Shown one piece after another: positions 16,171 to 29,531 of a stretch of 64,000 bases of DNA; the stretch's first letter is position 1, and each line of letters opens with the position of its first letter. This stretch comes from Kitasatospora sp. MMS16-BH015 (GTDB taxonomy: Bacteria; Actinomycetota; Actinomycetes; Streptomycetales; Streptomycetaceae), in NCBI RefSeq assembly GCF_002943525.1, contig NZ_CP025394.1:6525001-6589000 (forward strand), in the 5' to 3' direction. Below the pieces are notes generated by a model, which was not told the origin of the DNA, did no database searches, and saw only the letters and a list, made by a program, of their open reading frames with translations. The position numbers and the translations under genes were made by a program.

Positions 16171-17508
16171 TCAGATGTTCCGGAAGCGGTTGATGGCCGG
16201 CAGGTGCTTCTCACGCAGCTCGTGGTCGCGCACGCCCAGGCCCTCCTCGGGGGCGAGGCAGAGCACGCCGACCTTGCCCTGGTGCTTGTTCTGGTGCACG
16301 TCCAGGGCGGCCTGGCCGGTCTCCTCCAGGGAGTAGACCTTGGACACGGTCGGGTGGATCTTGCCCTTGGCGACCAGGCGGTTGGCCTCGAAGGCCTCGC
16401 GGTAGTTGGCGAAGTGCGAGCCGACGATCCGCTTGAGCGACATCCACAGGTAGCGGTTGTCGTACTGGTGCATGAAGCCGGAGGTGGAGGCGCAGGTGAC
16501 GATGGTGCCGCCCTTGCGGGTGACGTAGACCGAGGCGCCGAAGGTCTCGCGGCCCGGGTGCTCGAAGACGATGTCCACGTCCTCGCCGCCGGTGAACTCG
16601 CGGATCTTGCCGCCCAGGCGCTTCCACTCGCGCGGGTCCTGGTTCTGCTCGTCCTTCCAGAACTTGTAGCCCTCGGCGGAGCGGTCGATGATCGCCTCGG
16701 CGCCCATGGCGCGGCAGATCTCGGCCTTCTGCGGCGAGGAGACCACGCAGATCGGGGTGGCGCCGCCGGCCAGCGCGTACTGGGTGGCGTACGAGCCGAG
16801 GCCGCCGCTGGCGCCCCAGATCAGCACGTTGTCGCCCTGCTTCATGCCGGCGCCGTTGCGCGAGACCAGCTGGCGGTAGGCGGTGGAGTTGACCAGGCCG
16901 GGGGAGGCGGCCTCCTCCCAGCTGAGGTGCTTGGGCTTGGGCAGCAGCTGGTTGGTCTTGACCAGGGCGATCTGGGCCAGGCCGCCGAAGTTGGTCTCGA
17001 AGCCCCAGATGCGCTGCTCCGGGTCCATCATCGTGTCGTTGTGGCCGTCCGGGCTCTCCAGCTCGACGGAGAGGCAGTGCGCGACGACCTCGTCGCCCGG
17101 CTTCCAGGCGTTGACGCCCGCGCCGGTGCGCAGCACCACGCCCGCGAGGTCGGAACCGAGCACGTGGTACGGCAGGTCGTGGCGCTTGGTCAGCGGGGAG
17201 AGGCGGCCGTAGCGCTCCAGGAAGCCGAAGGTGGAGACCGGCTCGAAGATCGAGGACCAGACGGTGTTGTAGTTCACCGAGCTGGCCATCACGGCGACCA
17301 GGGCCTCGCCCGGGCCGAGCTCCGGGAGGGCGACCTCGTCGAGGTGGAGGGACTTACGGGGGTCCTTGTCGCGGCTGTCGAGGCCCGCGAACATCTGCTC
17401 CTCGTCCTTGTGGAGCGTCACGGCGCGGTAGTGCTCCGGAAGCGCCAGGTTGGCGAAGTCCGCCGAGGTGCTGTCGGTGGAGAGGATTGCGTCGAGGATT
17501 TCCTGCAT
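16171..17508 (-). CDS. ccr: Crotonyl-CoA carboxylase/reductase
   Basis: NADPH-dependent reductive carboxylation of crotonyl-CoA to (2S)-ethylmalonyl-CoA, the entry step of the ethylmalonyl-CoA pathway and also a source of extender units for polyketides. The 445-aa MDR-family enzyme has the NADPH-binding LIWGASGGLGSYA around 229-241. The four residues reported to bind CO2 in the K. setae enzyme fall at exactly the same numbers here: N81, F170, E171 and H365. A strong RBS (GGAGG, 5 nt spacer) precedes ATG 17508. It is the first gene of its operon, with a TetR gene and a palindromic site upstream. Confidence 0.96.
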   Translation of the reverse strand: MQEILDAILSTDSTSADFANLALPEHYRAVTLHKDEEQMFAGLDSRDKDPRKSLHLDEVALPELGPGEALVAVMASSVNYNTVWSSIFEPVSTFGFLERYGRLSPLTKRHDLPYHVLGSDLAGVVLRTGAGVNAWKPGDEVVAHCLSVELESPDGHNDTMMDPEQRIWGFETNFGGLAQIALVKTNQLLPKPKHLSWEEAASPGLVNSTAYRQLVSRNGAGMKQGDNVLIWGASGGLGSYATQYALAGGATPICVVSSPQKAEICRAMGAEAIIDRSAEGYKFWKDEQNQDPREWKRLGGKIREFTGGEDVDIVFEHPGRETFGASVYVTRKGGTIVTCASTSGFMHQYDNRYLWMSLKRIVGSHFANYREAFEANRLVAKGKIHPTVSKVYSLEETGQAALDVHQNKHQGKVGVLCLAPEEGLGVRDHELREKHLPAINRFRNI

Positions 17509-17692
17509 GGCTGCCTCCGAAGGCGTACCTGTGTTGAGGGCGCACAGGGCGTCTGGGGGAGCCGGGAGCGGACACCGGCTTCGCTGTCGGTCTGGGGTGG
17601 GTTGGGGTGCTGCGGCGACGACTGGTGGAGTCGCACAGACCCGGCGCGCCAAGGTGGGGAGCCGCGGCGCCGCGACTGATGGGTAACAAGCT

Positions 17693-17711
17693 AGTGGCAC
17701 CCTGTGCCACT
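17693..17711. promoter_or_regulatory. Palindromic operator candidate upstream of ccr
   Basis: AGTGGCACCCTGTGCCACT is a perfect 8+3+8 palindrome about 185 nt upstream of ccr. A further half-site (GGTGCCACT) occurs at 17725-17733, giving two AGTGGCAC elements in direct order on the minus strand. The adjacent TetR gene makes it a natural operator candidate. The rest of 17509-17847 holds the ccr leader, with no gene seen. Confidence 0.6.
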
Positions 17712-17781
17712 CGTAAAGACACGGGGTGCCACTATTTCCCAGTGTCACCGAACGGTGATCAGGGGCTGGTCGGGGGTAGCC

Positions 17782-17817
17782 GAAAGGCCCGCCCCACGGC
17801 ACTGGGACGGGCCTTTC
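17782..17817 (-). terminator. Terminator of the TetR gene
   Basis: GAAAGGCCCGCCCCA (17782-17796) pairs with TGGGACGGGCCTTTC (17803-17817): 14 of 15 bp with a 6-nt loop, 30 nt after the TetR stop. It insulates the TetR gene from the ccr operon. Confidence 0.85.
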
Positions 17818-17847
17818 CTGCCTTGCTGACCTGCGCAAACGCATCGA

Positions 17848-18756
17848 TCAGCCAGCTTGTGCGCCACCCAGGGCGGCGCGGATGGAGTCGACCACCAGCT
17901 CCAGCGGAGCGTCGGTCCGGGCGACTGTGATGAGTACCTCACCGCCGGGGGTGGCACTGAGTGCGCTGATGGCACTCGCCTCTCCGCCGGCCACCGTGTC
18001 ACCGTTGGCACCGGGTGCCACACCGAAACCGCGGCGTCTGGCCCCCCGGGGCGCGGTGGCCCAGAAGGTGTTGCGGATGACCTCGAAGGAGTGGTCGAGC
18101 TGCGCCTCCACGTCGCCCAGACCGCCGGCCCGCAGCCAGCGCCGCAGCACGTGGTTGTGGGCCGCGACCACCGCCGCCGCCGAGACCTCGGCCAGCATCG
18201 AGTCGTCGTCCCCGCCGCGCTGCCAGCCCGGCGGGATCTCCTCGGCCGCGTCGAACCGGCCCAGCAGGTACCGGGTGAAGAGCCGCTCGTACCGGGAGAC
18301 CACCGCGATCTCCCGCTCGCGCAGGGCCGGCACCTGACGGATCAGCTGGTACCGCGCGACGGACACACCCGGGGTGGAGGCGTACATCCGCAGCACCTCC
18401 TTGATGCCCCGGCAGACCACGTCGAGCGGGTGCTCCTCGTAGTCCGCGCTGGCCAGCAGGTCGGCCACCCGCACCAGGGTGTCGTCGTGGTCCGGGAAGA
18501 TCGCCTCCTCCTTCGACCGGAAGTACCGGAAGAAGGTGCGCCGGGCCACCCCGGCGGCGGCCGCGATCTGGTCGACCGTGGTCTCCTCGTACCCCTGGGT
18601 GGCGAACAGCTCCATCGCCGCCGCCGCCAGGTCCTGCCGCATCTGCAGCCGCTGCGCCGCCGCCCGCCGGGTGCCCGCACCCGGCTCGGGGCGGGCCGCC
18701 TCCGGCTGCTCGGCGGGCTGCAGGGGCGTGGCGGGGGTTGACTGTGGCCGGTCCAT
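17848..18756 (-). CDS. TetR-family regulator of the ethylmalonyl-CoA block (inferred)
   Basis: A 302-aa regulator. The first ~38 residues are a Pro/Ala-rich tail; the HTH follows at about 38-85 (LAAAAMELFATQGYEETTVDQ, AGVARRTFFRYFRSKEEAIF), which is the TetR signature. The helical ligand-binding domain follows, and the C-terminal ~60 residues are Ala/Gly-rich. It lies between the 3-hydroxyacyl-CoA dehydrogenase and ccr on the same strand, insulated by hairpins on both sides. This position and the palindrome at 17693 suggest it controls ccr and perhaps itself. Ligand unknown. Confidence 0.82.
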   Translation of the reverse strand: MDRPQSTPATPLQPAEQPEAARPEPGAGTRRAAAQRLQMRQDLAAAAMELFATQGYEETTVDQIAAAAGVARRTFFRYFRSKEEAIFPDHDDTLVRVADLLASADYEEHPLDVVCRGIKEVLRMYASTPGVSVARYQLIRQVPALREREIAVVSRYERLFTRYLLGRFDAAEEIPPGWQRGGDDDSMLAEVSAAAVVAAHNHVLRRWLRAGGLGDVEAQLDHSFEVIRNTFWATAPRGARRRGFGVAPGANGDTVAGGEASAISALSATPGGEVLITVARTDAPLELVVDSIRAALGGAQAG

Positions 18757-18881
18757 GCCCGGAACGCTACACGGCTGGGCCGGGCCGCCGCCGGGCCTGG
18801 GCCTGCGCACCGGGGCGGCCGGGTGGGCGGCGACCGGCACCGGCCGGCCCGCCGCGGCCGGGTTCCAGGCCGCCCGGACCT

Positions 18882-18913
18882 GACCGCCGCCGCCCGCGCC
18901 GGGCGGCGGCGTC
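18882..18913 (-). terminator. Terminator of the 3-hydroxyacyl-CoA dehydrogenase gene
   Basis: GACCGCCGCCGCCCG and CGGGCGGCGGCGTC pair over 14 bp with one bulged base and a 3-nt loop, starting 10 nt after the stop codon. Confidence 0.7.
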
Positions 18914-18923
18914 GACAGCGTGC

Positions 18924-20699
18924 TCATCGGCGGGCGTGGTCGCGGAAGCCGCGCCCGGTCTTGCGGCCCAGGCACCCGGCCGCCACCAGGTGCTCCAGCA
19001 GCGGCGCCGCGGCCAGGCCCGGCTCGCGGAACTCCTGGTGCAGCACCTGCTCGATGGTCAGCGAGACGTCCAGGCCGACCACGTCCAGCAGCTCGAACGG
19101 GCCCATCGGGTAGCCGCAGCCCAGCTTCATCGCGGTGTCGATGTCGTCCACCGTCGCGTAGTGCTCCTGCAGCATCCGCACCGCGTCGTTCAGGTACGGG
19201 AAGAGCAGCGCGTTCACGATGAAGCCGGCCCGGTCGCCGCACTCCACCGCGTGCTTCTTCACCTTGGCGCAGATCTCCAGCACGGTGGCCGTCACATCGG
19301 ACGCGGTCAGCACAGTGGAGACCACCTCGACCAGCTTCATCGCCGGGGCCGGGTTGAAGAAGTGCATCCCGATCACGTCCTGCGGGCGGCTGGTCGCCGT
19401 CGCGCAGCTGATCACCGGGAGGCTGGAGGTGGTGGTGGCCAGCACCGCGCCCGGCTTGCAGATCTTGTCCAGGGTGGCGAACAGCTCGCGCTTGACCGTG
19501 AGGTCCTCCGCGACCGCCTCGACCACCAGGTCGGCGCTGGCCAGGTCCTCGTACCGGCCGGTGGGGGTCACGTTGGCCAGCGCCGCGTCCCGCTGCTCGG
19601 CGCTGAGCCGGCCCTTGGCCACCGAACGTTCCAGCGACTTCGTCAGCTGCGCCTTGGCGTTCTCCGCCTTCTCCTGGCTGCGGGCCGCGAGCAGCACCCG
19701 GTACCCGGCCTTGGCGAAGACCTCCACGATGCCGGTGGCCATGGTGCCCGAGCCGCAGACCGCGATCTCGTTCACCTCGCGGCCGGCGGTGCGGGCCGCG
19801 GCGCCCTTGGCGGCCTCGGTGACCACCTTGGAGGAGCCCGGCGCCTCGTAGGTGTAGAAGCCGCGCCCGCTCTTGCGGCCGAGCAGCCCGGCCGAGACCA
19901 GCTGGCCCAGGATCGGCGCCGGGGCGTGCAGCCGGTCGCGGGACTGCTCGTACATCGCCTCGAGCACGGTGCGGGCGGTGTCCACGCCGATCAGGTCCAG
20001 CAGCGCCAGCGGGCCCATCGGCAGGCCGCAGCCCAGCCGCATCGCGGCGTCGATGTCCTCCCGGGTGGCGTACTTGGACTCGTACATCGCGGCGGCCTGG
20101 TTGAGGTACGCGAAGAGCAGGCCGTTGACGATGAAGCCGGCCCGGTCGCCCGCGGCCACCGGCTCCTTGCCCAGGCTGCGGGCGAACTCGGCCACGTCCT
20201 CGGCGGCCTGCGGGCCGGTCAGCACGGTGCGGACCACCTCGACCAGCTTCATGCTGTGCACCGGGTTGAAGAAGTGCACCCCGAGCACCCGCTCGGGCCG
20301 GGCGGTGGCGGCGGCGATCCGGGTCACGCTGAGCGCGGTGGTACCGGTCGCCAGCACCGTCTCCGGCGGGCAGATCCGGTCCAGCTCGGCGAAGATCTCC
20401 CGCTTCAGCTCCAGCTGCTCGGGCACCTCCTCGATCACCAGCTGGGCGGCAGCGGCGGCGGCCAGCTCGTCGCCGACCGAGATCAGCGCCAGCAGCTCGC
20501 CCCGCTCTTCGGCGGTCAGCCGCCCGCGCTCCACGGCGTGCGCGGTCGACTCCTGGATCCGGGCCAGCGCCCGCCCGGCGGCGTGGGCGTCGGCCTCGAT
20601 GCCGATCACCCGCCGCCCGCTCCGGGCGATCGCGACGGCGATGCCGGCACCCATGGTGCCGAGGCCGACCACGGCGACGGTGGGGAAGGGACGCTCCAT
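18924..20699 (-). CDS. Two-module 3-hydroxyacyl-CoA (3-hydroxybutyryl-CoA) dehydrogenase
   Basis: A 591-aa protein made of two complete 3-hydroxyacyl-CoA dehydrogenase units in tandem. Unit 1 starts TVAVVGLGTMGAGIA (residues ~6-20) with LGVHFFNPVHSMKLVEVV. Unit 2 starts EIAVCGSGTMATGIVEV (~310) with IGMHFFNPAPAMKLVEVV. Each has the NAD Rossmann motif, the HFFNP catalytic His/Asn region and a C-terminal helical domain (GxPMGP). It probably supplies acetoacetyl-CoA/3-hydroxybutyryl-CoA interconversion ahead of crotonyl-CoA for Ccr. ATG 20699 is preferred over ATG 20720 because an AAGGAG lies 10 nt upstream. Confidence 0.88.
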   Translation of the reverse strand: MERPFPTVAVVGLGTMGAGIAVAIARSGRRVIGIEADAHAAGRALARIQESTAHAVERGRLTAEERGELLALISVGDELAAAAAAQLVIEEVPEQLELKREIFAELDRICPPETVLATGTTALSVTRIAAATARPERVLGVHFFNPVHSMKLVEVVRTVLTGPQAAEDVAEFARSLGKEPVAAGDRAGFIVNGLLFAYLNQAAAMYESKYATREDIDAAMRLGCGLPMGPLALLDLIGVDTARTVLEAMYEQSRDRLHAPAPILGQLVSAGLLGRKSGRGFYTYEAPGSSKVVTEAAKGAAARTAGREVNEIAVCGSGTMATGIVEVFAKAGYRVLLAARSQEKAENAKAQLTKSLERSVAKGRLSAEQRDAALANVTPTGRYEDLASADLVVEAVAEDLTVKRELFATLDKICKPGAVLATTTSSLPVISCATATSRPQDVIGMHFFNPAPAMKLVEVVSTVLTASDVTATVLEICAKVKKHAVECGDRAGFIVNALLFPYLNDAVRMLQEHYATVDDIDTAMKLGCGYPMGPFELLDVVGLDVSLTIEQVLHQEFREPGLAAAPLLEHLVAAGCLGRKTGRGFRDHARR

Positions 20700-21188
20700 G
20701 TGTACCTGACTCCTTGTCATGGTCCCCGTGCGGCGGCCCTGCGGGCAGGCCTGGGCGGCCCTGACTCGCAGGGGAGGGTACGGTCGCACGGGGAGACGGG
20801 AATGACGGTTGCGGCACGCGCGGGCACCGGCCGGTCCGCTCCGGCCGTGCTGCGGGTGTGTGCCGTGGTGCTCAGGCGCTGAAGTGTGGCTGCGCTGCAC
20901 AGGAAACAACGCACGTTCGCCCCGCCCGACTCCGTGCGATGGCACGACGGACGGCAGCCCCGCTGGTGCGGCTCCCGAAGCCCAGCGGTGGTGCGTGCCG
21001 GTCACTGTAGCGAAGCTACTGCCGAGTAGGAAGGGGTCAGGTTGTAAGGGAAACCGGGCCGAGCCCGGAACGCCGGGCCGTCCACCCCCCGAAACAGGGG
21101 GGTGCAGGCGGCCCGCACCCCCCGCATAACGTCATCTCCGTCGCCGGGGAATGAGCCCCGGAGGGCAGGACTTCCGGGGGAGGCAGCG
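20700..21188. promoter_or_regulatory. Divergent promoter region, dehydrogenase / lanthipeptide locus
   Basis: This 489-nt region lies between the minus-strand dehydrogenase and the plus-strand LanKC gene and must hold both promoters. It contains the 30-nt repeat copy at 20930-20959, a perfect GTAGCGAAGCTAC palindrome near 21006-21018, and a short hairpin ACCCCCC/GGGGGGT (21084-21103) in the likely LanKC leader. No protein gene is supported. Confidence 0.55.
20930..20959 (+). repeat. 30-nt direct repeat, left copy, flanking the lanthipeptide locus
   Basis: Thirty bases running CTCCGTGCGATGGCACG then ACGGACGGCAGCC are identical, in the same orientation, to 28161-28190. The match stops exactly at both ends. 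The two copies enclose all five lanthipeptide genes and nothing else. Confidence 0.9.
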
Positions 21189-23750
21189 GTGTTCGACTTC
21201 TGGCTGACGCTGGCGGACGAGGAGTTCTACGTCCCGCTGGAGCGGGCCGCCGGGGTCGGCGAGCAGTACCGACCCGGCGCCGTGCCGACGGGCTGGCGGG
21301 AGACCGCCGAGGGTGTCTGGCGGCACTGGCAGCCGGCCGAGCTGGTGATCGCCGAGCAGGGGTGGAAGGTGCACGTCTCCACCACCCTCGCCCGGCTGCA
21401 GTTCACCCTCGACACCGTGGCGCGGATCTGCTTCGAGGAAGGCCTGGCCTTCAAGCACCTGGCCAACCAGCTCTTCTTCGAGACGGTGCACCACAAGCAC
21501 GCCGCCCGCTCGCAGGCCGGCAAGTTCTGCGCCGTCTACCCGCCGGACGCCGACCGCGCACGGCAGCTGATGGACCGGCTGGCCGTCGAGCTCAAGGAGG
21601 AGGTCGGGCCGTACGTGCTCTCCGACCGCCGGTACGGCGAGACCGGAGTGGTCTACTACCGCTACGGCGCCTTCCTGAGCCGCAGCCGGCTGCAACCGGA
21701 CGGCACCGAGCTGCACCTGGTCCGGGACGCCGAGGGCAACGAGGTGCCGGACGTGCGCAGCGCGCAGTTCACCCTGCCCGCCGGGGTGACGGACCCGTTC
21801 GCCCCGCCGCCCGCCCCGCACACCGGCCCGATCCTGCTCGGTGGTCGGTACGAGATCACCGAGGTGATCCGGCACAGCAACGGCGGCGGCACCTACCGGG
21901 CCACCGACACCACCACCGGCCGGAAGGTCTTCGTCAAGGAGGCCCGCGCCCACAACGGCCTGATCGGCGACGGCACCGACTCCCGGGACCGGCTGCGCGC
22001 GGAGTACGAGATCCTGTGCCTCGTCCACGACCGGGCCCCGAGCCTCTGCCCCGAGCCGATCGACCACTTCACCGAGTGGGAGCACGACTTCCTGGTCGCC
22101 GAGCACGTCGAGGGCACCGGCTTCCTCCAGTGGGTCGCCAGCCACAGCGTGATGGGCCGGCTCGGGGTGCGGGCCGAGCGCCACACGGCCTACCTCGGCG
22201 AGGTCGAACGGATCCTGGCGGACCTGCGGGGCCAGGTCGACCGGCTGCACGCGATCGGGCTGCGCTTCGGCGACCTCAGCCCCGGCAACGTGGTCGTCCA
22301 GGAGGACCTGACGGTCCGCCTGATCGACTTCGAGACCGCCACCCCCCTCGCCGAACCGCCCTCCCCGCTCGGCACCCCGGGCTACCGGCCGCCCGAGGCG
22401 CTGCGGGAGGCGGGGGTCGAGCACGACGAGTACGGCCTCTCGGGGCTCGCCCTGTGCGCGCTCTTCCCGTTGAACCGGACCTTCGAGCGCGACGGCCGAG
22501 GCCGCGCCGAGCTGCTCCGGCGGGACCTCGAACAGGAGGTGCCCGTCCCGGCCGCGCTCTGGCAGACGGCGACCAGGTACCACGGCAGCACCACCCCCGA
22601 GATCACCACCGACCACGACCTCCCCACCGCCGCCGAGCTGGACGAACACCCCGAGTGGGCGCTCACCGCCCTGCGCGAGGGCCTCACCGCAGGCCTGCTC
22701 GCGATGGCCCGGCCGGACGGCGCGGACTGGGTCTTCCCGCCCCCGCCCGGCGGGTACCTGGTGAACACCCACTGCCTGGAGCACGGCACCGCCGGTGTGC
22801 TGCACGCCCTGCACCGGGCGGGCGTGCCGATCCCGGCGGAGCTGCTGGACCGCTTCCGCCGCGACGCGCTCGGCAGCGCCGAGACCCTGGCGCCCGGTCT
22901 GCAGGTCGGCACCGCCGGCCTGGCCTGGGTGCTGGCCGAACTCGGCCTGGCCGAGGAGGCCGACCGACTGCTGGGGCTCTCGCTCGGGCACCCGCTCGCC
23001 CTCGGCAGCGCCCACCTCGGCAACGGTGCGGCCGGGATCGGCCTGGTGCACCTGGACTTCCACGCCCGGTACGGCGACGAGCAGCGGCTGCGCACCGCCA
23101 CCAAACTCGGCGACGCCTTCGCCGGCCCGCACCGCGCGGCCGTCCTGGCCGGCGCGGGGGTGTCGGGGCTGGAGGCCGGCCTCGCGGGCACCGCACTCTT
23201 CCTGACCGCACTCGGCGAGCACACCGGCGAGCAGCGGTACCTGGCGGGCGCCGTCCGGCTGATGCACGCCGAGCTGGACCGGGCGGTGGAGGACCCCGAG
23301 GACGGACTGCTCTTCCCGGGAGACTCCGGCACCCGCAACCTCCCCTACCTCTCGCGCGGCTCGGCCGGGGTGGCCCTGGCGCTCTCTCGGCTGGCCGCCG
23401 CGACCGGTGACGAGCGCTGCGCGGCCGCCCTGCCCCGGGTGCTGACCATGTGCCGGCTCACCTGCGCGGCCGAACCCGGCCTCCACCAGGGCGTCGCGGG
23501 CTGGGCGTACACCCTCGCCGAGCACGCCCACCACGGCGGCGGGCCGGCCGAGCGGCAGGCGGCCGTCCGGATCGCCACCGGCCTGGCCAAGTACGCGATC
23601 CGGCACCCCAGCGGCCTGCGGGTGCTCGGCGGCGGCCAGGAGCGCTACTCCGCCGACCTGGGCTCCGGCAGCGCGGGCGTGCTGCTCGCGCTGGCCCGGG
23701 TACTCGACGGCCCCGGGGCGACCCTGCTCCCCGACCCGGCCGCCCACTGA
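21189..23750 (+). CDS. Class III lanthipeptide synthetase (LanKC)
   Basis: An 853-aa trifunctional enzyme that phosphorylates Ser/Thr of the precursor, eliminates phosphate and cyclises. Residues ~1-200 form the lyase-like domain (GWKVHVSTTLARLQ, LAFKHLANQLFF, GPYVLSDRRYG, YYRYGAF). About 220-480 form a Ser/Thr-kinase-like domain (Gly loop, FVKEAR Lys, RFGDLSPGN catalytic loop, LIDFETA). About 530-853 form a LanC-like alpha-barrel that lacks the zinc-binding Cys/His motifs (GSAHLGNGAAGI and YLSRGSAGVAL instead of CHG-type sites), which marks class III. GTG 21189 has GGAGG 5 nt upstream. The precursor gene follows. Confidence 0.93.
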   Translation: MFDFWLTLADEEFYVPLERAAGVGEQYRPGAVPTGWRETAEGVWRHWQPAELVIAEQGWKVHVSTTLARLQFTLDTVARICFEEGLAFKHLANQLFFETVHHKHAARSQAGKFCAVYPPDADRARQLMDRLAVELKEEVGPYVLSDRRYGETGVVYYRYGAFLSRSRLQPDGTELHLVRDAEGNEVPDVRSAQFTLPAGVTDPFAPPPAPHTGPILLGGRYEITEVIRHSNGGGTYRATDTTTGRKVFVKEARAHNGLIGDGTDSRDRLRAEYEILCLVHDRAPSLCPEPIDHFTEWEHDFLVAEHVEGTGFLQWVASHSVMGRLGVRAERHTAYLGEVERILADLRGQVDRLHAIGLRFGDLSPGNVVVQEDLTVRLIDFETATPLAEPPSPLGTPGYRPPEALREAGVEHDEYGLSGLALCALFPLNRTFERDGRGRAELLRRDLEQEVPVPAALWQTATRYHGSTTPEITTDHDLPTAAELDEHPEWALTALREGLTAGLLAMARPDGADWVFPPPPGGYLVNTHCLEHGTAGVLHALHRAGVPIPAELLDRFRRDALGSAETLAPGLQVGTAGLAWVLAELGLAEEADRLLGLSLGHPLALGSAHLGNGAAGIGLVHLDFHARYGDEQRLRTATKLGDAFAGPHRAAVLAGAGVSGLEAGLAGTALFLTALGEHTGEQRYLAGAVRLMHAELDRAVEDPEDGLLFPGDSGTRNLPYLSRGSAGVALALSRLAAATGDERCAAALPRVLTMCRLTCAAEPGLHQGVAGWAYTLAEHAHHGGGPAERQAAVRIATGLAKYAIRHPSGLRVLGGGQERYSADLGSGSAGVLLALARVLDGPGATLLPDPAAH

Positions 23751-23779: not shown

Positions 23780-23843
23780 CCACCGTCCCTCGCACCTCCG
23801 CGAGCCGACGGACCACCGCACCACGATCCGGAAGGACACCACC

Positions 23844-23966
23844 ATGAACGCCGTCATCGCACTGCAGTCCCTCGAGGAGAGCGCCCAGGGCACCGAGCTG
23901 CTCCCGATCACCGGTCTGGGCAGCGCGTTCAGCTACTACAGCCGCTGCTCCACCACCTGCGGCTGA
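23844..23966 (+). CDS. Class III lanthipeptide precursor peptide
   Basis: A 40-aa peptide. The N-terminus has VIALQSLEES, fitting the short hydrophobic-hydrophobic-Leu-Gln leader box known for class III precursors. The predicted core is about LGSAFSYYSRCSTTCG (residues 25-40). Ser27, Ser30, Ser33, Ser36 and Cys39 are spaced by exactly three, and Cys35 is a second thiol. S27-x2-S30-x4-C35 and S33-x2-S36-x2-C39 both fit the labionin pattern Ser-x2-Ser-x(2-5)-Cys. ATG 23844 follows GGAAGGA. The leader/core boundary is a guess. It sits between the synthetase and exporter genes. Confidence 0.9.
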   Translation: MNAVIALQSLEESAQGTELLPITGLGSAFSYYSRCSTTCG

Positions 23967-24102: not shown

Positions 24103-24203
24103 CACCGCGCTTCATCTCGCACCGCGCTTCACCTCGCACCCCGCTCCACCTCGCACCGCGCTTCACCCCTCGCCCTGCTCCACCCCTCACCCCGCTCCAC
24201 CTC
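24103..24203 (+). repeat. Six imperfect tandem copies of a 17-nt unit
   Basis: Units of the type CACCGCGCTTCACCTCG repeat at 24103, 24120, 24137 and 24154, followed by two shortened versions. They lie in the untranslated gap between the precursor hairpin and the exporter start. No function is evident; the repeats contain no RBS or start. Confidence 0.85.
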
Positions 24204-24229: not shown

Positions 24230-26044
24230 ATGGTCGACACCGTGCCGGCTCCGGCCGCCGAGGCCGCCGCCGAGCTGCGGCTCGGCGAGGTCCTGGCCGA
24301 TCTGCGCCGCTACCTGGCCCCCGAGCGTGGGCGCTTGCTGGCGGCGGGCCTGCTCCTGCTGCTCTCCGGCGCCGTCGGGTTGGCGCAGCCGCTGGTCGTG
24401 CGGCAGCTGCTTGGGGGTGCCACCCCGCTGCGGCACGCCGCCGGGCCGGTCGCGGCCCTGATCGTCCTGGTCGTGGTCGGCGCCGTCGGCTCCGCGTACG
24501 GCAACTACCAGCTGACCACCGCCGCCGAGGGCACCGTGCTGACGGCCCGTCGGCTGCTCACCGCCCATGTGCTGCGCCTGCCGATGGCGGCCTTCCGCCG
24601 CGCCACCCCCGGCGACCTGATGGCCCGGGTCACCGGCGACACGACCTTGTTGCGCCAGGTGGTGCAGCTGACGCTGGTGCAGGCGGCCACCGGCCTGGTC
24701 ACGGCGGCCGGCGCGCTGGTGCTGATGGCCACACTGGATCCGGTACTGCTGGGCGTCAGCCTGCTGGCCATCCTGTTGCTGCTGGGCACCGTGGGCCTGA
24801 TCCTGCCTCGGATCCGCGCGGCCTCGATCGGCGCCCAGAACTCGATCGGCGACCTGGGCACCGTGCTGGACCGCTCGCTCACCGCCTTCACCACGGTCAA
24901 GGCCAGCGGCACCGAGGAGGCGGAGGCCGCGCGGATCCGGGCCGCGGCCGAGCAGGCGTACCGGCACGGCGTGGTCCGGGCCCGCTGGGACTCCACCGCC
25001 AACGCCGTGGCCATGCTGGCCGTGCAGCTCGTCTTCCTGGTGGTGCTCGGCGTCGGCGCGCTGCGGATCTCGGCCGGCGCGATCCAGGTCGCCACCCTGG
25101 TGGCCTTCCTGCTCTACGTGCTCTTCCTGGCCGGGCCGGTGATGTCCCTGGTCGCGGTCTTCGCCTTCGCCCAGACCGGCCGCGCGGTGCTGCAACGGAT
25201 CGGCGAGATCACCCGCCTGCCGCCGGAGCCCGCACGCTCGCCCCTGCCGCTCCCGGAGCCCGTGGCGTCTGCCGCTGCCGGGGCGACTGTGGTCTTCGAC
25301 CGGGTCTCCTTCCGCTACCCGCGCAGCGCCGAGCCGGTGCTGCGCGAGTTCTCCCTCACCGTGCCGGCCGTCGGCCTGACCGCGCTGGTCGGCCCCTCCG
25401 GCGGCGGCAAGAGCACCGCGCTCAACCTGATCGAGCGCTTCTGGGACCCGGAGGCCGGCTCGATCCTGGTGGACGGCACGGAGGTGCGCGACTGGGACCT
25501 GCACCGGCTGCGCGGGGCCATCGGCTACGTGGAGCAGGACGCTCCGGTGCTGGCCGGCACCCTGCGCGAGAACCTCGCCTACGCCGTCGACCACGCCACC
25601 GAGGCCGAGCTGCGCGAGGTGGTCGCCCTCGCCCGGCTCGACGGTCTGCTGGAGCGGCTCGGCGGCGACCTGGACGCGCCCGTCCAGTACCGCGGCGTCT
25701 CGCTCTCCGGCGGTGAGCGCCAGCGGATCGCCATCGCCCGGGCCCTGCTGCGCCGCCCCCGCCTGCTGCTGCTCGACGAGGCGACCTCGCAACTGGACGC
25801 CGCCAACGAGGCGGCGCTGCGCGCGGTGGTGCAGGAGCTCGCGGCCCGGATGCCGGTGCTCGCCGTCGCCCACCGACTCTCCACGGTGCTCGGTGCCACC
25901 ACCATCGCCGTGGTGGAGTCCGGCACCGTCCGGGCGGTCGGCTCCCACCACGAGCTGCTCTGCACCGACCCGGTCTACGCCCACCTCGCCGCCCACCAGC
26001 TGCTCGCCGATGATCCCAACTCCCGTGAATTCGCCACTCCTTGA
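24230..26044 (+). CDS. ABC exporter (fused membrane and ATPase domains)
   Basis: A 604-aa type-I ABC exporter half-transporter, presumably a homodimer exporting the lanthipeptide. A six-helix transmembrane domain covers residues ~35-320 (GLLLLLSGAVGLAQPL, LMATLDPVLLGVSLLAILLL and others). The ATPase domain has Walker A GPSGGGKS, signature LSGGERQRI, Walker B LLLLDEAT and H-loop VAHRLS. There is no N-terminal peptidase domain, so leader removal must be done by another protease. ATG 24230 follows CAGGAAGGGA. It is 263 nt from the precursor gene because of the hairpin and tandem repeats. Confidence 0.92.
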   Translation: MVDTVPAPAAEAAAELRLGEVLADLRRYLAPERGRLLAAGLLLLLSGAVGLAQPLVVRQLLGGATPLRHAAGPVAALIVLVVVGAVGSAYGNYQLTTAAEGTVLTARRLLTAHVLRLPMAAFRRATPGDLMARVTGDTTLLRQVVQLTLVQAATGLVTAAGALVLMATLDPVLLGVSLLAILLLLGTVGLILPRIRAASIGAQNSIGDLGTVLDRSLTAFTTVKASGTEEAEAARIRAAAEQAYRHGVVRARWDSTANAVAMLAVQLVFLVVLGVGALRISAGAIQVATLVAFLLYVLFLAGPVMSLVAVFAFAQTGRAVLQRIGEITRLPPEPARSPLPLPEPVASAAAGATVVFDRVSFRYPRSAEPVLREFSLTVPAVGLTALVGPSGGGKSTALNLIERFWDPEAGSILVDGTEVRDWDLHRLRGAIGYVEQDAPVLAGTLRENLAYAVDHATEAELREVVALARLDGLLERLGGDLDAPVQYRGVSLSGGERQRIAIARALLRRPRLLLLDEATSQLDAANEAALRAVVQELAARMPVLAVAHRLSTVLGATTIAVVESGTVRAVGSHHELLCTDPVYAHLAAHQLLADDPNSREFATP

Positions 26045-26062: not shown

Positions 26063-26084
26063 GTCGATCTTGTGCGAGATCGAC
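26063..26084. promoter_or_regulatory. Inverted repeat ahead of the sensor kinase gene
   Basis: GTCGATCT (26063-26070) and AGATCGAC (26077-26084) form a perfect 8-bp inverted repeat with a 6-nt spacer, 23 nt before the kinase start. A TAGAAT box (26048-26053) just upstream could be a -10 element. It is a possible operator for the adjacent regulator or an RNA hairpin. Confidence 0.45.
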
Positions 26085-26107
26085 CCCGTGCAGCCAGGGA
26101 GTCTCAG

Positions 26108-27229
26108 GTGGAGTCAGGTTTACAACGGGCCCGGCGGTTCATGATCCTGGCCACTGGCCTGTTCCGGGCCACCCACCTGGTCGGCGGAGCGGTCGCGGCG
26201 ATCGGCGACCGCACCGGTCTGCTGCTGTTCGGGCTCTCGCTGACGACCAGCACCGCGCTCTACCTCCCGGGCTACCGGCGGGACCGGCTCGGCCGCTACC
26301 GGCTCTGGGCCGACGCGTTGGTCACCGGCTGCCTGGTCCCCGTCCTCGCGCTGCCGGCCGTCAACGGGCCGATCACCCCGGCGGTCTCCTGGGTGGCGCT
26401 GCTCGGCAGCTCCTCGGCCGCCGCCGTGGCGGCCGGGCTCGACGGCAGGTCGGCACTGAGTGCGATCGGGCTGGTCTCCGCCGTACACGCGGCCTGCTAC
26501 CTGCAGTCCGGGCAGGCCGCCGCGTTGGGCGGGCACCTGCTCTCGCTGGTCTCGGCCGGCGTGATGGCGCACATCTTCTGGCGCTACCTCCACCGCCAGG
26601 GCGCCATGCTGGACGAGGCCCGGGAGCGGGCCCTGGTCGCCGAGGCCGCCCGGGCCCGCCGGACCGAACGGGCCGCCCAGCACCGGGCCTTGCACGACAC
26701 CGTGCTGGCCACCCTGACCGCCATCGTCCACGAGCGGGTCGACCCCACGGCGGAGACCTTCCGGGAGCGCTGTGCCCGGGAGGCCTCCTACCTGCGCCGG
26801 CTGATCCAGCGTTCGGACGAGGAGGAGGGCCAAGGCGGTGACCTCGCGGCGGGCGCGGCCCTGGAACAGGCGGTCGCCGCGGCCGAGGGCATCGGCCTCA
26901 CCGTCCACACCCGCTACCACGCCCTGCCCGTCCTACCCGCCCAGGTGGCCCGGGCCCTGGCCGCCGCGGTGACCGAGGCCCTGAACAACGTCCGCCACCA
27001 CGCCGGGACTTCGACCGCGCACTTGACCGCCACCGGCAGCGGCCGGGGCATCGTCGTCACCGTGGCGGACGAGGGCTGCGGCTTCGACAGCAGCGCCACG
27101 ACGGGCACTGGCACCGGCACCGGCCTGCGCCGGTCGGTGCACGGCCGGATGACGGAGATAGGCGGCAGCGCAGCGGTGGACAGCGCCCCCGGCGAGGGCA
27201 CCCTGGTGGAGCTCACGTGGCCGGCCTGA
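26108..27229 (+). CDS. NarL-type sensor histidine kinase of the lanthipeptide locus
   Basis: A 373-aa membrane kinase. About four to five hydrophobic segments lie within residues 10-155, then a charged helix. The phospho-acceptor region RALHDTVLATL has its His at ~196. The HATPase shows the N-box TEALNNVRHHA and G1 box VADEGCGF. GTG 26108 was chosen because AGGGAG lies 6 nt upstream. Codon 5 is TTA (26120-26122), the rare Leu codon that needs the bldA tRNA in streptomycetes, so the kinase is probably made only in development or late growth. It overlaps the response regulator gene by 13 nt. Confidence 0.9.
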   Translation: MESGLQRARRFMILATGLFRATHLVGGAVAAIGDRTGLLLFGLSLTTSTALYLPGYRRDRLGRYRLWADALVTGCLVPVLALPAVNGPITPAVSWVALLGSSSAAAVAAGLDGRSALSAIGLVSAVHAACYLQSGQAAALGGHLLSLVSAGVMAHIFWRYLHRQGAMLDEARERALVAEAARARRTERAAQHRALHDTVLATLTAIVHERVDPTAETFRERCAREASYLRRLIQRSDEEEGQGGDLAAGAALEQAVAAAEGIGLTVHTRYHALPVLPAQVARALAAAVTEALNNVRHHAGTSTAHLTATGSGRGIVVTVADEGCGFDSSATTGTGTGTGLRRSVHGRMTEIGGSAAVDSAPGEGTLVELTWPA

Positions 27230-28143
27230 CCCCGGAGCCCGGCGGCCCGATCACGTCTCCCGCCTGCCCGCCCCCGGAGCCCGCCGACCCGACTCCCGAG
27301 CCCGGCGGCCCGCCCACGAAGCCCGGGGGTGCGGCTGAGGCGTCTGCCGGCCCGCCCCCGGCTCCCGGCGGCCCGATCGCGTCTCCCGCCGACCCGACCC
27401 CCGGGCCCGGCGGCCCGTCCCCGAGGCTCGGGGACACAGCAGAGGCGTCTGCCGACCAGCCCCCGGACTCCGCCGATCCGAACCCTCATCCCGCCGGCAC
27501 GGTCACTGTCGCCGCCGTGGACGACGACCGGATGCTGCTGGAGGGCCTGGCCTCCTGGCTGACGCGGGCGCCGCATCTGCGGCTGCTGGACTGCGCCGTC
27601 ACCGTGGACGAGCTGCTGGCCGGCCCGGGGCGGCACGCCGATGTGGTGCTGCTCGACCTACTGCTGCGGGACGGCTCGGCGCCCGAGGCGAACGTCACCC
27701 GGCTCCGACTGGCCGGGCCCCGGGTGCTGATGATCAGTACGCAGGGCGAACCGGCCGCCATGGTTGCCACCGTCGAGGCGGGCGCGGCCGGCTACCTGAC
27801 CAAGGACCACGCCCTGGACCGCCTGGTGGCGGCGATCGACGAGGTGGCCGCCGGCCGGCCCGTGCACTCGCCCGAGCTGGCCTTCGCCCTGGCCAACGAC
27901 GAGCGGCCCGTCCGGCCCAAGCTCAGCCCGCGTGAGCTCCAGGTGCTCCGCGACTACGCCTCCGGCCTGACCCTCAAGGCAGCCGCCCGCCGGGCCGGCA
28001 TCAGCCCGCAGACGGCCAAGTGGTACCTCGACCAGGTCAAGGCCAAGTACCAACAGGCTGGCCGCCCCACCTTCACCAAACTCGACCTGGCCGCCCGCGC
28101 CCGCGAGGACACCCTCCTCACCGGGCTCACACCCCCGGACTGA
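27217..28143 (+). CDS. NarL/LuxR-type response regulator with Pro-rich N-terminal extension
   Basis: A 308-aa response regulator. Residues 1-95 are a Pro/Gly/Ala-rich extension containing a duplicated 42-residue unit. The receiver domain starts near 96 with a complete phosphorylation pocket: acidic triad DDD at 102-104, Asp147 in ADVVLLDLLL, Thr in MISTQG and Lys in YLTKDH. The C-terminal HTH is LSPRELQVLRDYASGLTLKA ... GISPQTAKWYLDQVK. No in-frame start exists between the extension and the receiver domain, so the extension must be translated. GTG 27217 overlaps the kinase gene. The likely target is the lanthipeptide operon. Confidence 0.9.
   Translation: MAGLTPEPGGPITSPACPPPEPADPTPEPGGPPTKPGGAAEASAGPPPAPGGPIASPADPTPGPGGPSPRLGDTAEASADQPPDSADPNPHPAGTVTVAAVDDDRMLLEGLASWLTRAPHLRLLDCAVTVDELLAGPGRHADVVLLDLLLRDGSAPEANVTRLRLAGPRVLMISTQGEPAAMVATVEAGAAGYLTKDHALDRLVAAIDEVAAGRPVHSPELAFALANDERPVRPKLSPRELQVLRDYASGLTLKAAARRAGISPQTAKWYLDQVKAKYQQAGRPTFTKLDLAARAREDTLLTGLTPPD
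27241..27480 (+). repeat. 126-nt tandem duplication within the response regulator gene
   Basis: The sequence beginning GGCGGCCCGATCACGTC at 27241 recurs at 27367 (GGCGGCCCGATCGCGTC). The second copy has an internal deletion of about 7 codons. It encodes the Pro-rich extension (GGPITSPA... and GGPIASPA...). Both copies keep the reading frame. Confidence 0.8.
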
Positions 28144-28502: not shown

Positions 28503-29180
28503 TCATTTATGATTCAATTTATTCCAATTGCCGACCCACTCCGGGGGATCTTCGAGTCGGCTGATGAAATATTCGAGGCGTGCGCGCTCGCCGCCAATTA
28601 TGTTGACAATGAGAGCTGCCACTCCAAAACCTTCTGCGGCATCCTTGTAGAGTTGCCAAAGTCCCGCGCGTGCGGCACTTGCGCAAGCGCCGACTGGAGT
28701 CCCGTTGACCATCTCCTCGCCCTCGCCGCTAATGCTCCGGAGAATCGTGGTGTGAAGCTTGTGGCGAGCCTCGGGGTGGAGCTCTTCGCTCAATGCGGCC
28801 ACCATTACGGTGATGGCAACGGGCGTGACCTCGAAAATGATGGTTCCATGCTCGACGTGCCCCTCGAAATCAACCCGTCGAATTTTCTCTTCCGTGTTCG
28901 CGGAAATCAGATTGCGCAAGTCGGTGGCAAGATGGCCGGCCGGGCGCCCGCAGCCACATTCATACGAATCCCAATCGATTCGATCAATCTCAAGCGTCGA
29001 CAGCCTCAAGTTGGCCCCTGGAGGTTCGGGAAAATTGGAGGTCCATCATACCTGGGCAGGTCAAAGTACGGGCCATGCTCGAATCGATGATCCGGAAAGT
29101 GCATCTGACACGTCGAGCGGACCTCTATCTCTCCAGAAGAAATGCGAAGGGAAGGGGGAATGGCATTCCCAGAGGCTCGA
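28330..29180. other. AT-richer segment suggesting horizontal transfer
   Basis: Base composition drops visibly from the >70% GC of the surroundings, with runs such as AATATTCGAGG, CCAATTATGTTGAC and CATTTATGATTCAATTTATT. It covers the putative immunity gene and toxin tip and borders an IS3 remnant. The exact GC value was not computed. Confidence 0.75.
28503..29009 (-). CDS. Putative immunity protein / small alpha-helical hypothetical
   Basis: A 168-aa soluble, mostly helical protein beginning RLSTLEIDRIDWDSYECGCG. It has alternating amphipathic segments (HEAT-like impression: AITVMVAALSEELHPEARHK, GACASAARAGLWQLYKDAAE), without signal peptide or membrane helix. The start is TTG 29009, overlapping the stop of the upstream fragment (TTGA) with AGGGG 5 nt before it. 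A small gene coupled to the 3' end of a possible secreted-toxin gene is the usual layout of toxin-immunity pairs. Function is inferred only. The opposite strand is also open but reads less like protein. Confidence 0.55.
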   Translation of the reverse strand: MRLSTLEIDRIDWDSYECGCGRPAGHLATDLRNLISANTEEKIRRVDFEGHVEHGTIIFEVTPVAITVMVAALSEELHPEARHKLHTTILRSISGEGEEMVNGTPVGACASAARAGLWQLYKDAAEGFGVAALIVNIIGGERARLEYFISRLEDPPEWVGNWNKLNHK

Positions 29181-29215
29181 CTGAAGAAGACTTCATCCAA
29201 CGCCCACCCGGTACC
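29006..29215 (-). pseudogene. Possible C-terminal tip of a polymorphic toxin, 5' part lost
   Basis: About 69 codons (ALDEVFFSRASGNAIPPSLR ... FPDHRFEHGPYFDLPRYD) are in frame with an upstream IS3 transposase fragment and stop inside the start of the putative immunity gene. Acidic/His/aromatic residues are dense, as in small toxin domains, but no family is recognised. The rest of the original gene is missing, apparently replaced by the insertion element. It may equally be a meaningless open frame. Confidence 0.35.
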
Positions 29216-29455
29216 GTTCCGGTCCGCGACCGTCGTGCGGACCGTGCGCCGCAGGCGACGCCCGGCCAGCCCGCGTCCCCACAGCAGCCGGGCAACGCGC
29301 TTGCGGGGGACTGCACCGTGCCGTTCCCACAGCTCGCGGGTGCTCCTGGGGATGCCGTAGGCGCCGTTCGACTCGCTGTGGATCTCCTCGATCAGCCCGG
29401 CCAGTTCCTCATCCGCCGCCCTGCGGGCCATGCGGACGGGGGCGCGCGTATCCAT
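29216..29455 (-). mobile_element. IS3-family transposase OrfB fragment
   Basis: About 80 codons match the N-terminal HTH-containing region typical of IS3 OrfB: LAGLIEEIHSESNGAYGIPR, then TRELWERHGAVPRKRVARLL and GLAGRRLRRT. The catalytic DDE core is absent and no second ORF (OrfA) is present, so this is a dead remnant. It marks the boundary between the AT-richer scar and the following GC-rich genes. Confidence 0.75.
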
Positions 29456-29531
29456 CGGTAGAAACCCGGACGCCGAGACCCTCAGCCCGAATATCCGCTT
29501 CTCAGAAGTGTCCACACCACGGGGTAAAGCC

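What the first reader, a model, noticed from the sequence alone, without database searches (positions are those of the whole stretch)
23844..23966. Lanthipeptide core with Ser at every third residue ending in Cys
In the 40-aa precursor, Ser27, Ser30, Ser33, Ser36 and Cys39 are spaced by exactly three residues, with an extra Cys35. Two overlapping labionin-type patterns (S27-x2-S30-x4-C35 and S33-x2-S36-x2-C39) can be drawn. The leader and LanKC place it in class III (established family knowledge). The ring pattern could not be matched from memory to a described peptide, so the product may be new.
Basis: partly seen in the sequence, partly recalled or inferred. Interest (0 to 1): 0.85.

Follow-up and report, generated by a model that had tools for sequence, protein, structure and literature searches.

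The report
Class III lanthipeptide with interleaved rings
A soil bacterium's gene cluster encodes a small ring-closed peptide whose ring-forming amino acids interleave instead of following one another; it is a genuine new member of a known peptide class, and its actual ring structure would be worth measuring.

Summary
In detail: window 23844-23966 (+) encodes a 40-aa peptide with Ser27, Ser30, Ser33, Ser36, Cys39 at every third position, plus Cys35. It is a class III lanthipeptide precursor: it passes NCBIfam NF038160's cut-off and follows a LanKC that passes NF038151's. An ABC exporter and a two-component system follow.

S27-x2-S30-x4-C35 fits the published labionin/lanthionine motif and is invariant in the six aligned precursors (the window's and five relatives'). 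S33-x2-S36-x2-C39 does not fit: its first spacer contains C35, and the two patterns cross. A published rule would give S27/S30/C35 plus a simple S36-C39 lanthionine.

The crossed arrangement is not a single-sequence accident. The five precursors found in one well-supported LanKC clade (four genomes, two genera) have it; none of the 80 other motif-bearing precursors in my biased collection does; and two relatives lacking the second Cys also lack Ser33. A published survey states that crossed bridges never involved labionin motifs. The peptide is therefore a good test of whether a class III cyclase makes crossed rings. The rings are undetermined, no paper in the held library contained the core fragments I tried, and the activity is unknown.

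The parts
21102..23750 (+). LanKC, class III lanthionine synthetase (882 aa; RamC_N, kinase and LanC-like domains); the start codon may lie downstream of 21102
   Evidence: NF038151 767.7 bits, cut-off 575; Pfam RamC_N, Pkinase, LANC_like; PDB LanKC 8sao E 1.1e-75
23830..23836 (+). likely ribosome-binding site GGAAGGA upstream of lanA
   Evidence: read directly; GGAAGGA also precedes both G087 copies
23844..23966 (+). lanA, 40-aa precursor
   Evidence: NF038160 lanthi_III_c 39.5 bits, cut-off 27
23844..23906 (+). leader, residues 1-21, with the class III LQ motif (IALQSLE); boundary inferred
   Evidence: LxLQ motif described in PMC7268733 (passages); A6 L7 Q8 L10 invariant in the six aligned precursors
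23907..23963 (+). core, residues 22-40, ITGLGSAFSYYSRCSTTCG; S27, S30, C35 form the first unit, S36 and C39 (with or without S33) the second
   Evidence: boundary and pairing inferred
24230..26044 (+). ABC exporter (membrane + ATPase domains), probable LanT
   Evidence: a 72% identical ABC protein follows the precursors in G087
26072..27229 (+). sensor histidine kinase
   Evidence: HATPase_c; homologue near LanKC in G016 and G028
27217..28143 (+). LuxR-type response regulator; the real start is probably near 27500, after a Pro-rich repeat stretch
   Evidence: Response_reg from residue 98 and GerE; repeats 27220-27496

Best explanation
A small, clade-specific class III lanthipeptide cluster. 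LanKC binds the LQ-motif leader, phosphorylates core serines and eliminates phosphate to give dehydroalanines, then closes rings with its zinc-free cyclase domain. C35 closes on S30, with or without a carbon-carbon bond to S27 (labionin or lanthionine). C39 closes on S36, with S33 either left as dehydroalanine (uncrossed) or joined as a second, crossed labionin. The peptide is exported by the adjacent ABC protein and its leader is removed by a protease encoded elsewhere in the genome. Shown: gene order, families, conservation. Inferred: all chemistry, the leader/core boundary, export and processing. Activity unknown.
For: Precursor and synthetase pass curated cut-offs. Kinase residues D391, N396 and D409-F410-E411 are kept in all four LanKCs of the clade. 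S27, S30 and C35 are invariant in six aligned precursors; the five precursors found in the clade keep the second Ser pair plus Cys. LanKC tree: window, G087 and two further genomes (L066, L067) form one clade, SH-aLRT 100, on a long stem. A 72% identical ABC protein follows the precursors in G087. The genome holds one Peptidase_S9_N (prolyl-oligopeptidase type) and six Peptidase_M1 matches as protease candidates. Class III enzymes studied work from C- to N-terminus (PMC7296275 passages), so C39 would react before C35.
Against: No product has been seen. Between the window and first G087 precursor, differences fall evenly over codon positions (10, 8, 8), so there is no third-position excess; conservation rests on the S/C grid and the leader. 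The window precursor's own relatives score below the NF038160 cut-off of 27 (G087 25.8, G016 20.0), so that family only partly describes the clade. No ABC match was found in the G016 and G028 stretches fetched. The residues matching ThurKC F770 and D771 are H795 and Q796 here, and position 796 varies even within the clade, so the cyclase mechanism is not confirmed by residue. Pairings other than the two discussed (such as S30/S33/C39) are not excluded.
Confidence: 0.75

Rival explanations
1. Uncrossed: labionin or lanthionine S27/S30/C35 followed by a simple lanthionine S36-C39, with S33 as free dehydroalanine.
For: This is what the published rule gives when applied by hand: C39 pairs with the nearest Ser/Thr at least three residues away, and labionin spacers exclude Cys; the rule was right for 92 of 100 known peptides (PMC11251773).
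Against: It gives no reason why S33 is kept in the five precursors with a second Cys and is absent in the two relatives that lack it; that is few independent events.
Confidence: 0.5
2. Crossed: two interlocking labionins, S27/S30/C35 and S33/S36/C39, formed C-terminus first.
For: The S-x2-S-x2-S-x-C-S grid is conserved in five precursors of one LanKC clade; S33 and the second Cys come and go together; the described C-to-N order would let C39 act before C35.
Against: A survey found no crossed bridges with labionin motifs and suggests the class III cyclase cannot make them. C35 would sit inside the carbocycle of the second labionin.
Confidence: 0.25
3. One labionin or lanthionine, plus a C35/C39 disulfide or a free Cys, another pairing such as S30/S33/C39, or a mixture of incompletely cyclised products.
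For: A labionin within a larger disulfide ring is reported for paenithopeptins (PMC8960859 passages). S30-x2-S33-x5-C39 can be drawn. G087's first precursor has three Cys, so cysteine use is not obviously fixed.
Against: C35 is the only Cys within reach of the invariant S27/S30 pair, and Cys35 is itself invariant.
Confidence: 0.15
4. Chance short reading frame, not a gene.
For: No annotation or expression data; 40 codons; no third-position excess against G087.
Against: Profile hit above cut-off, position directly after LanKC, and homologues directly after LanKC in three other genomes.
Confidence: 0.01

Closest known systems
SapB / AmfS / durhapeptin type class III lanthipeptides
   Same: LanKC, LQ leader, S-x2-S-xn-C units; durhapeptin also has a transporter gene and a regulator nearby (PMC13380574 passages; cluster details of SapB/AmfS recalled)
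   Different: Durhapeptin's units are tandem SxxSxxxC (tandem order in SapB/AmfS recalled); here they interleave. The window genome has a separate class III cluster with two tandem units (precursor MEILELQSLETPVEDTTANASTLSVVNCGVSTVSTILCL), so a morphogen role for this one is less likely
Cys-first LanKC branch (CFSVAWSISDIFPEPM-type precursors)
   Same: A related LanKC branch, mostly 46-49% identical (best segment) to the window LanKC
   Different: Cys lies before the serines and there is no C-terminal Cys. All 25 such precursors harvested are CxSxxxS and none CxSxxS, so they resemble but do not match the CxSxxS 'reverse labionin' subfamily C of PMC11251773
NCBIfam NF038160 lanthi_III_c, typical SSSSxCC members
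   Same: Leader and overall profile; the window precursor passes the cut-off
   Different: Many members found here have SSSSDCCK-type cores; the window's nearest relatives fall below the cut-off
Paenithopeptins
   Same: Class III labionin plus an additional cysteine link
   Different: From Paenibacillus (Firmicutes); labionin inside a disulfide ring (PMC8960859 passages)

Membership tests
Class III lanthipeptide | LanKC synthetase with lyase, kinase and cyclase domains | tested here: met
   NF038151 767.7 over 575 bits; class IV model 439.5 under 650; Pfam domains
Class III lanthipeptide | Cyclase domain without the zinc ligands | tested here: met
   The positions matching ThurKC S726/F770/D771, which stand in place of the ligands (PMC10604976 passages), are S751, H795, Q796; no Cys there (mapped by my reading of the alignment)
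Class III lanthipeptide | Precursor with LQ leader next to LanKC | tested here: met
   IALQSL leader, 93 bases after LanKC; NF038160 39.5 over 27 bits
Labionin-type motif | S[^C]2S[^C]2-5C | tested here: met
   S27-x2-S30-x4-C35
Labionin-type motif | Second unit S33-x2-S36-x2-C39 by the same definition | tested here: not met
   First spacer is R34-C35, contains Cys
Labionin-containing peptide | Labionin present in the product | not testable with these tools
   Needs mass spectrometry or NMR. The DFE kinase motif said to be conserved in labionin makers is present, but F410 is in 72 and E411 in 82 of 84 LanKCs aligned, so it does not discriminate
SapB-type morphogen | Induces aerial hyphae | not testable with these tools
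   No activity data; another class III cluster with tandem units is in the same genome

The most novel reading that the evidence does not exclude
A dedicated LanKC clade makes crossed (interlocked) labionin rings, S27/S30/C35 through S33/S36/C39, a topology that a published survey suggests class III cyclases cannot produce.
Probability: 0.25. Interest if true: 0.7.

Novelty: new variant of a known kind. Interest (0 to 1): 0.45.

Why it matters
How a zinc-free class III cyclase chooses between lanthionine and labionin, and whether it can make crossed rings, is open. This clade supplies natural substrates in which the two ring units overlap, each with its own LanKC, plus relatives lacking both Ser33 and the second Cys as natural controls. 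One co-expression with tandem MS would go far to settle it. If the rings are uncrossed, it is an ordinary new class III peptide.

Tried and rejected
Chance reading frame: rejected. Period-3 serine as itself remarkable: rejected, 38 of 129 harvested leaders have four or more Ser/Cys at period 3. Purifying selection from codon positions between window and G087: not shown (10, 8, 8). Cys-first precursors as the published subfamily C: I assumed this in a note, but a check found 0 of 25 with CxSxxS. Plasmid relatives: 21 records, all under 60% identical in LanKC, not followed. Class-wide precursor search: own genome the only strong hit of 394; nine others had E 3e-4 to 0.009 and were not followed. 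Weak hits in G297 (E 7e-4) and in G117 and G096 were not followed. In the first search 48 of 297 genomes matched at E <= 1, mostly at E above 0.1; I followed the own, G087, G016, G085 and G028 places. The precursor harvest used a strict LQ expression, so it can miss precursors (17 of the 56 tree rows show none) and may include false frames. Of 90 LanKCs extracted, 61 were chosen, five under 650 residues were dropped, and 56 went into the tree. The tree is the quick method; it named five long end branches (L062, L117, L137, L115, L103) and warned that L117 meets the side that holds the window and 48 more rows. Searches for crossed or interlocked class III rings gave no described case in the listings. 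Structure prediction was not run.

Full report
Observation. A GGAAGGA stretch precedes the ATG. Shuffling core residues 22-40 gives a five-long Ser/Cys run at period 3 in 0.33% and two crossed motifs in 0.07% of 200,000 draws, while a single labionin-type motif arises in 12%. These figures are post hoc, and 38 of 129 harvested leaders have period-3 runs of four or more.

What it is. The peptide passes the cut-off of NCBIfam NF038160 (39.5 over 27 bits), and the gene before it (21102-23750) passes NF038151 for class III LanKC (767.7 over 575), while the class IV model stays below its cut-off. In a genome search NF038160 was over its cut-off in 25 of 394 family genomes and in 0 of 14 control genomes; the window's nearest relatives scored below it (G087 25.8, G016 20.0 bits). 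Pfam sees RamC_N, kinase and LanC-like domains in the synthetase, and its best sequence match among solved structures is a class III LanKC (8sao). An ABC exporter, a histidine kinase and a LuxR-type regulator follow. No protease was recognised among the neighbouring ORFs that I scanned; actinobacterial class III clusters usually lack one (PMC7268733 passages). The genome holds one Peptidase_S9_N match and six Peptidase_M1 matches.

Whose genome. The window lies at 6525001-6589000 of an 8.96 Mb single-contig genome. It is held without a name; another genome of the same genus, G014, has a contig of the same length as a record titled Kitasatospora sp. CB01950 (246085 bases), so Kitasatospora in the wide sense is likely. 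By the same comparison G016 matches Streptomyces sp. ICBB 8177 and G028 matches Streptantibioticus parmotrematis.

Relatives. Strong matches to the precursor profile A2 occur in 5 of 394 family genomes (own, G087, G016, G028, G085; a sixth is weak), 2 of 70 genus genomes (own, G087; two more weak), both of 2 genomes of G016's genus, and only the own genome among 394 class genomes (nine others weak). A2 was built from these five genomes' own sequences, so those score by construction. G087 has two precursors, MNAVLALQGLEETGKGFEAPAITGMGSMVSYYSSCSTTCQAC and MSAVLALQGLTETTKSPETPGYTGIGSMISIFSSCSSHCTAL. The window LanKC is 73% identical to that of G087, 64% to those of G016 and G028, 47% to that of G085. 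In the order sample 44 of 391 genomes have a LanKC match at 1e-100; apart from the own gene only G016's exceeds 51% (G087 and G028 do not appear in its table). A segment of a Streptomyces diastatochromogenes LanKC reaches 56%, with a CFSVSWS-type precursor.

The interleaved pattern. S27, S30 and C35 are invariant in six aligned precursors, the window's included. In the harvest from 213 loci there are 129 distinct LQ-leader frames, 127 with a Cys after residue 12; 85 hold S-x2-S-x2-5-C (Cys allowed in spacers here), 18 have two in tandem, and 5 have two that cross. The five are exactly the window's, G087's two, and those of G016 and G028. In the last two the second unit is S-x2-S-x4-C rather than x2. 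G085 and Streptomyces sparsogenes have SHLSVILDC and SHLSVFMDC: the first unit without the Ser at +6 and without a second Cys; in both, this precursor lies on the strand opposite to the LanKC found, so it may belong to another synthetase. In the 56-row LanKC tree the four LanKCs with crossed precursors form one clade (SH-aLRT 100, stem 0.62), apart from the Cys-first group and from the G085/S. sparsogenes pair. The set was recruited by similarity, so these counts are not rates in nature, and the shared history of the five means their agreement is one or a few events.

What the literature says. Class III motifs are SxxSx{2,5}C, giving labionin or lanthionine (PMC11251773 passages; PMC8960859 passages). 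[quoted passage not shown] Applied by hand to this peptide, the rule gives S27/S30/C35 plus S36-C39. The Cys-first precursors of the neighbouring LanKC branch are CxSxxxS in 25 of 25 and CxSxxS in 0 of 25, so they do not match that paper's CxSxxS subfamily C, although both put Cys first. Durhapeptin has two tandem SxxSxxxC units (PMC13380574 passages); that paper cites nocardiopeptins ('unprecedented bridging pattern') and rochsin A ('coupled labionin cross-links'), whose papers I have not seen and which could bear on novelty. Class III enzymes studied work C- to N-terminus (PMC7296275 passages). ThurKC shows a metal-free cyclase (PMC10604976 passages). Searches for core fragments (no paper), for class III with Kitasatospora or Streptantibioticus (listing) and for crossed, interlocked or intertwined class III rings (listings) gave no title or abstract start describing this peptide. 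PMC9576775, which tested class III clusters, mentions Kitasatospora only for a class II cluster in the passages read.

Synthetase residues. D391, N396, D409, F410, E411, K89, H91, K118, K141 and K279 are the same in all four clade LanKCs. The positions matching ThurKC S726, F770 and D771 are S751, H795 and Q796. Q796 is A or T in the other clade members, so ring choice cannot be read from it. Twenty-seven positions are uniform in the four clade rows and under 3% elsewhere in the alignment, a list for later mutagenesis.

Mechanism and verdict. The best-supported picture is class III maturation with the first unit at S27/S30/C35 and the second Cys closing on S36. Whether S33 joins as a crossed labionin (0.25) or remains dehydroalanine (0.5) is open; the rest is a disulfide, another pairing or a mixture. 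The window genome carries another class III LanKC over the cut-off at 7.05 Mb beside a precursor with two tandem units, so a morphogen role is less likely for this one, but activity is unknown. It is a new variant, at the level of core pattern, of a known kind.

Noticed in passing
window 24103-24203: About six copies of a 17-bp unit (CACCCCGCTCCACCTCG) between the precursor and the ABC gene.
   Followed up: no
window 27220-27496: Pro-rich 21/42/105-bp tandem repeats at the 5' end of the response-regulator frame; the receiver domain begins only at residue 98, so the start codon is probably later.
   Followed up: no
window 29006-29515 (-): HTH_21 domain, as in IS3-type transposases (family use recalled), just beyond the cluster; in G087 a Mutator-type transposase frame lies beside the ABC gene (L061:5785-6552). 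With the sparse occurrence this suggests mobility.
   Followed up: partly
L068-L071, L074-L079, L081, L082, L084, L087, L090, L100, L108, L111, L113, L116, L123: Related LanKCs with Cys-first precursors such as CFSVAWSISDIFPEPM: 25 of 25 are CxSxxxS, 0 are the published CxSxxS; product unknown to me.
   Followed up: partly
L086, L088, L089, L092, L093, L096, L097, L099, L101, L102, L104-L107, L109, L110, L114: Seventeen LanKC loci in the tree for which my strict LQ-leader search found no precursor; some stretches end near the gene, others may use different leaders.
   Followed up: no
G000:C1:1727157, 1695713, 2463641: Three further LanKC/LanL-like synthetases in the window's genome below the class III cut-off; beside the first lies METQVLELQELPETDDQPLDPVMCCDTGHHSFWESYFCVTPPEGDC.
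   Followed up: no
window 16171-20817 (-): Crotonyl-CoA carboxylase/reductase, a two-unit 3-hydroxyacyl-CoA dehydrogenase and a TetR-type regulator upstream of the cluster, as in the ethylmalonyl-CoA pathway (pathway recalled).
   Followed up: no
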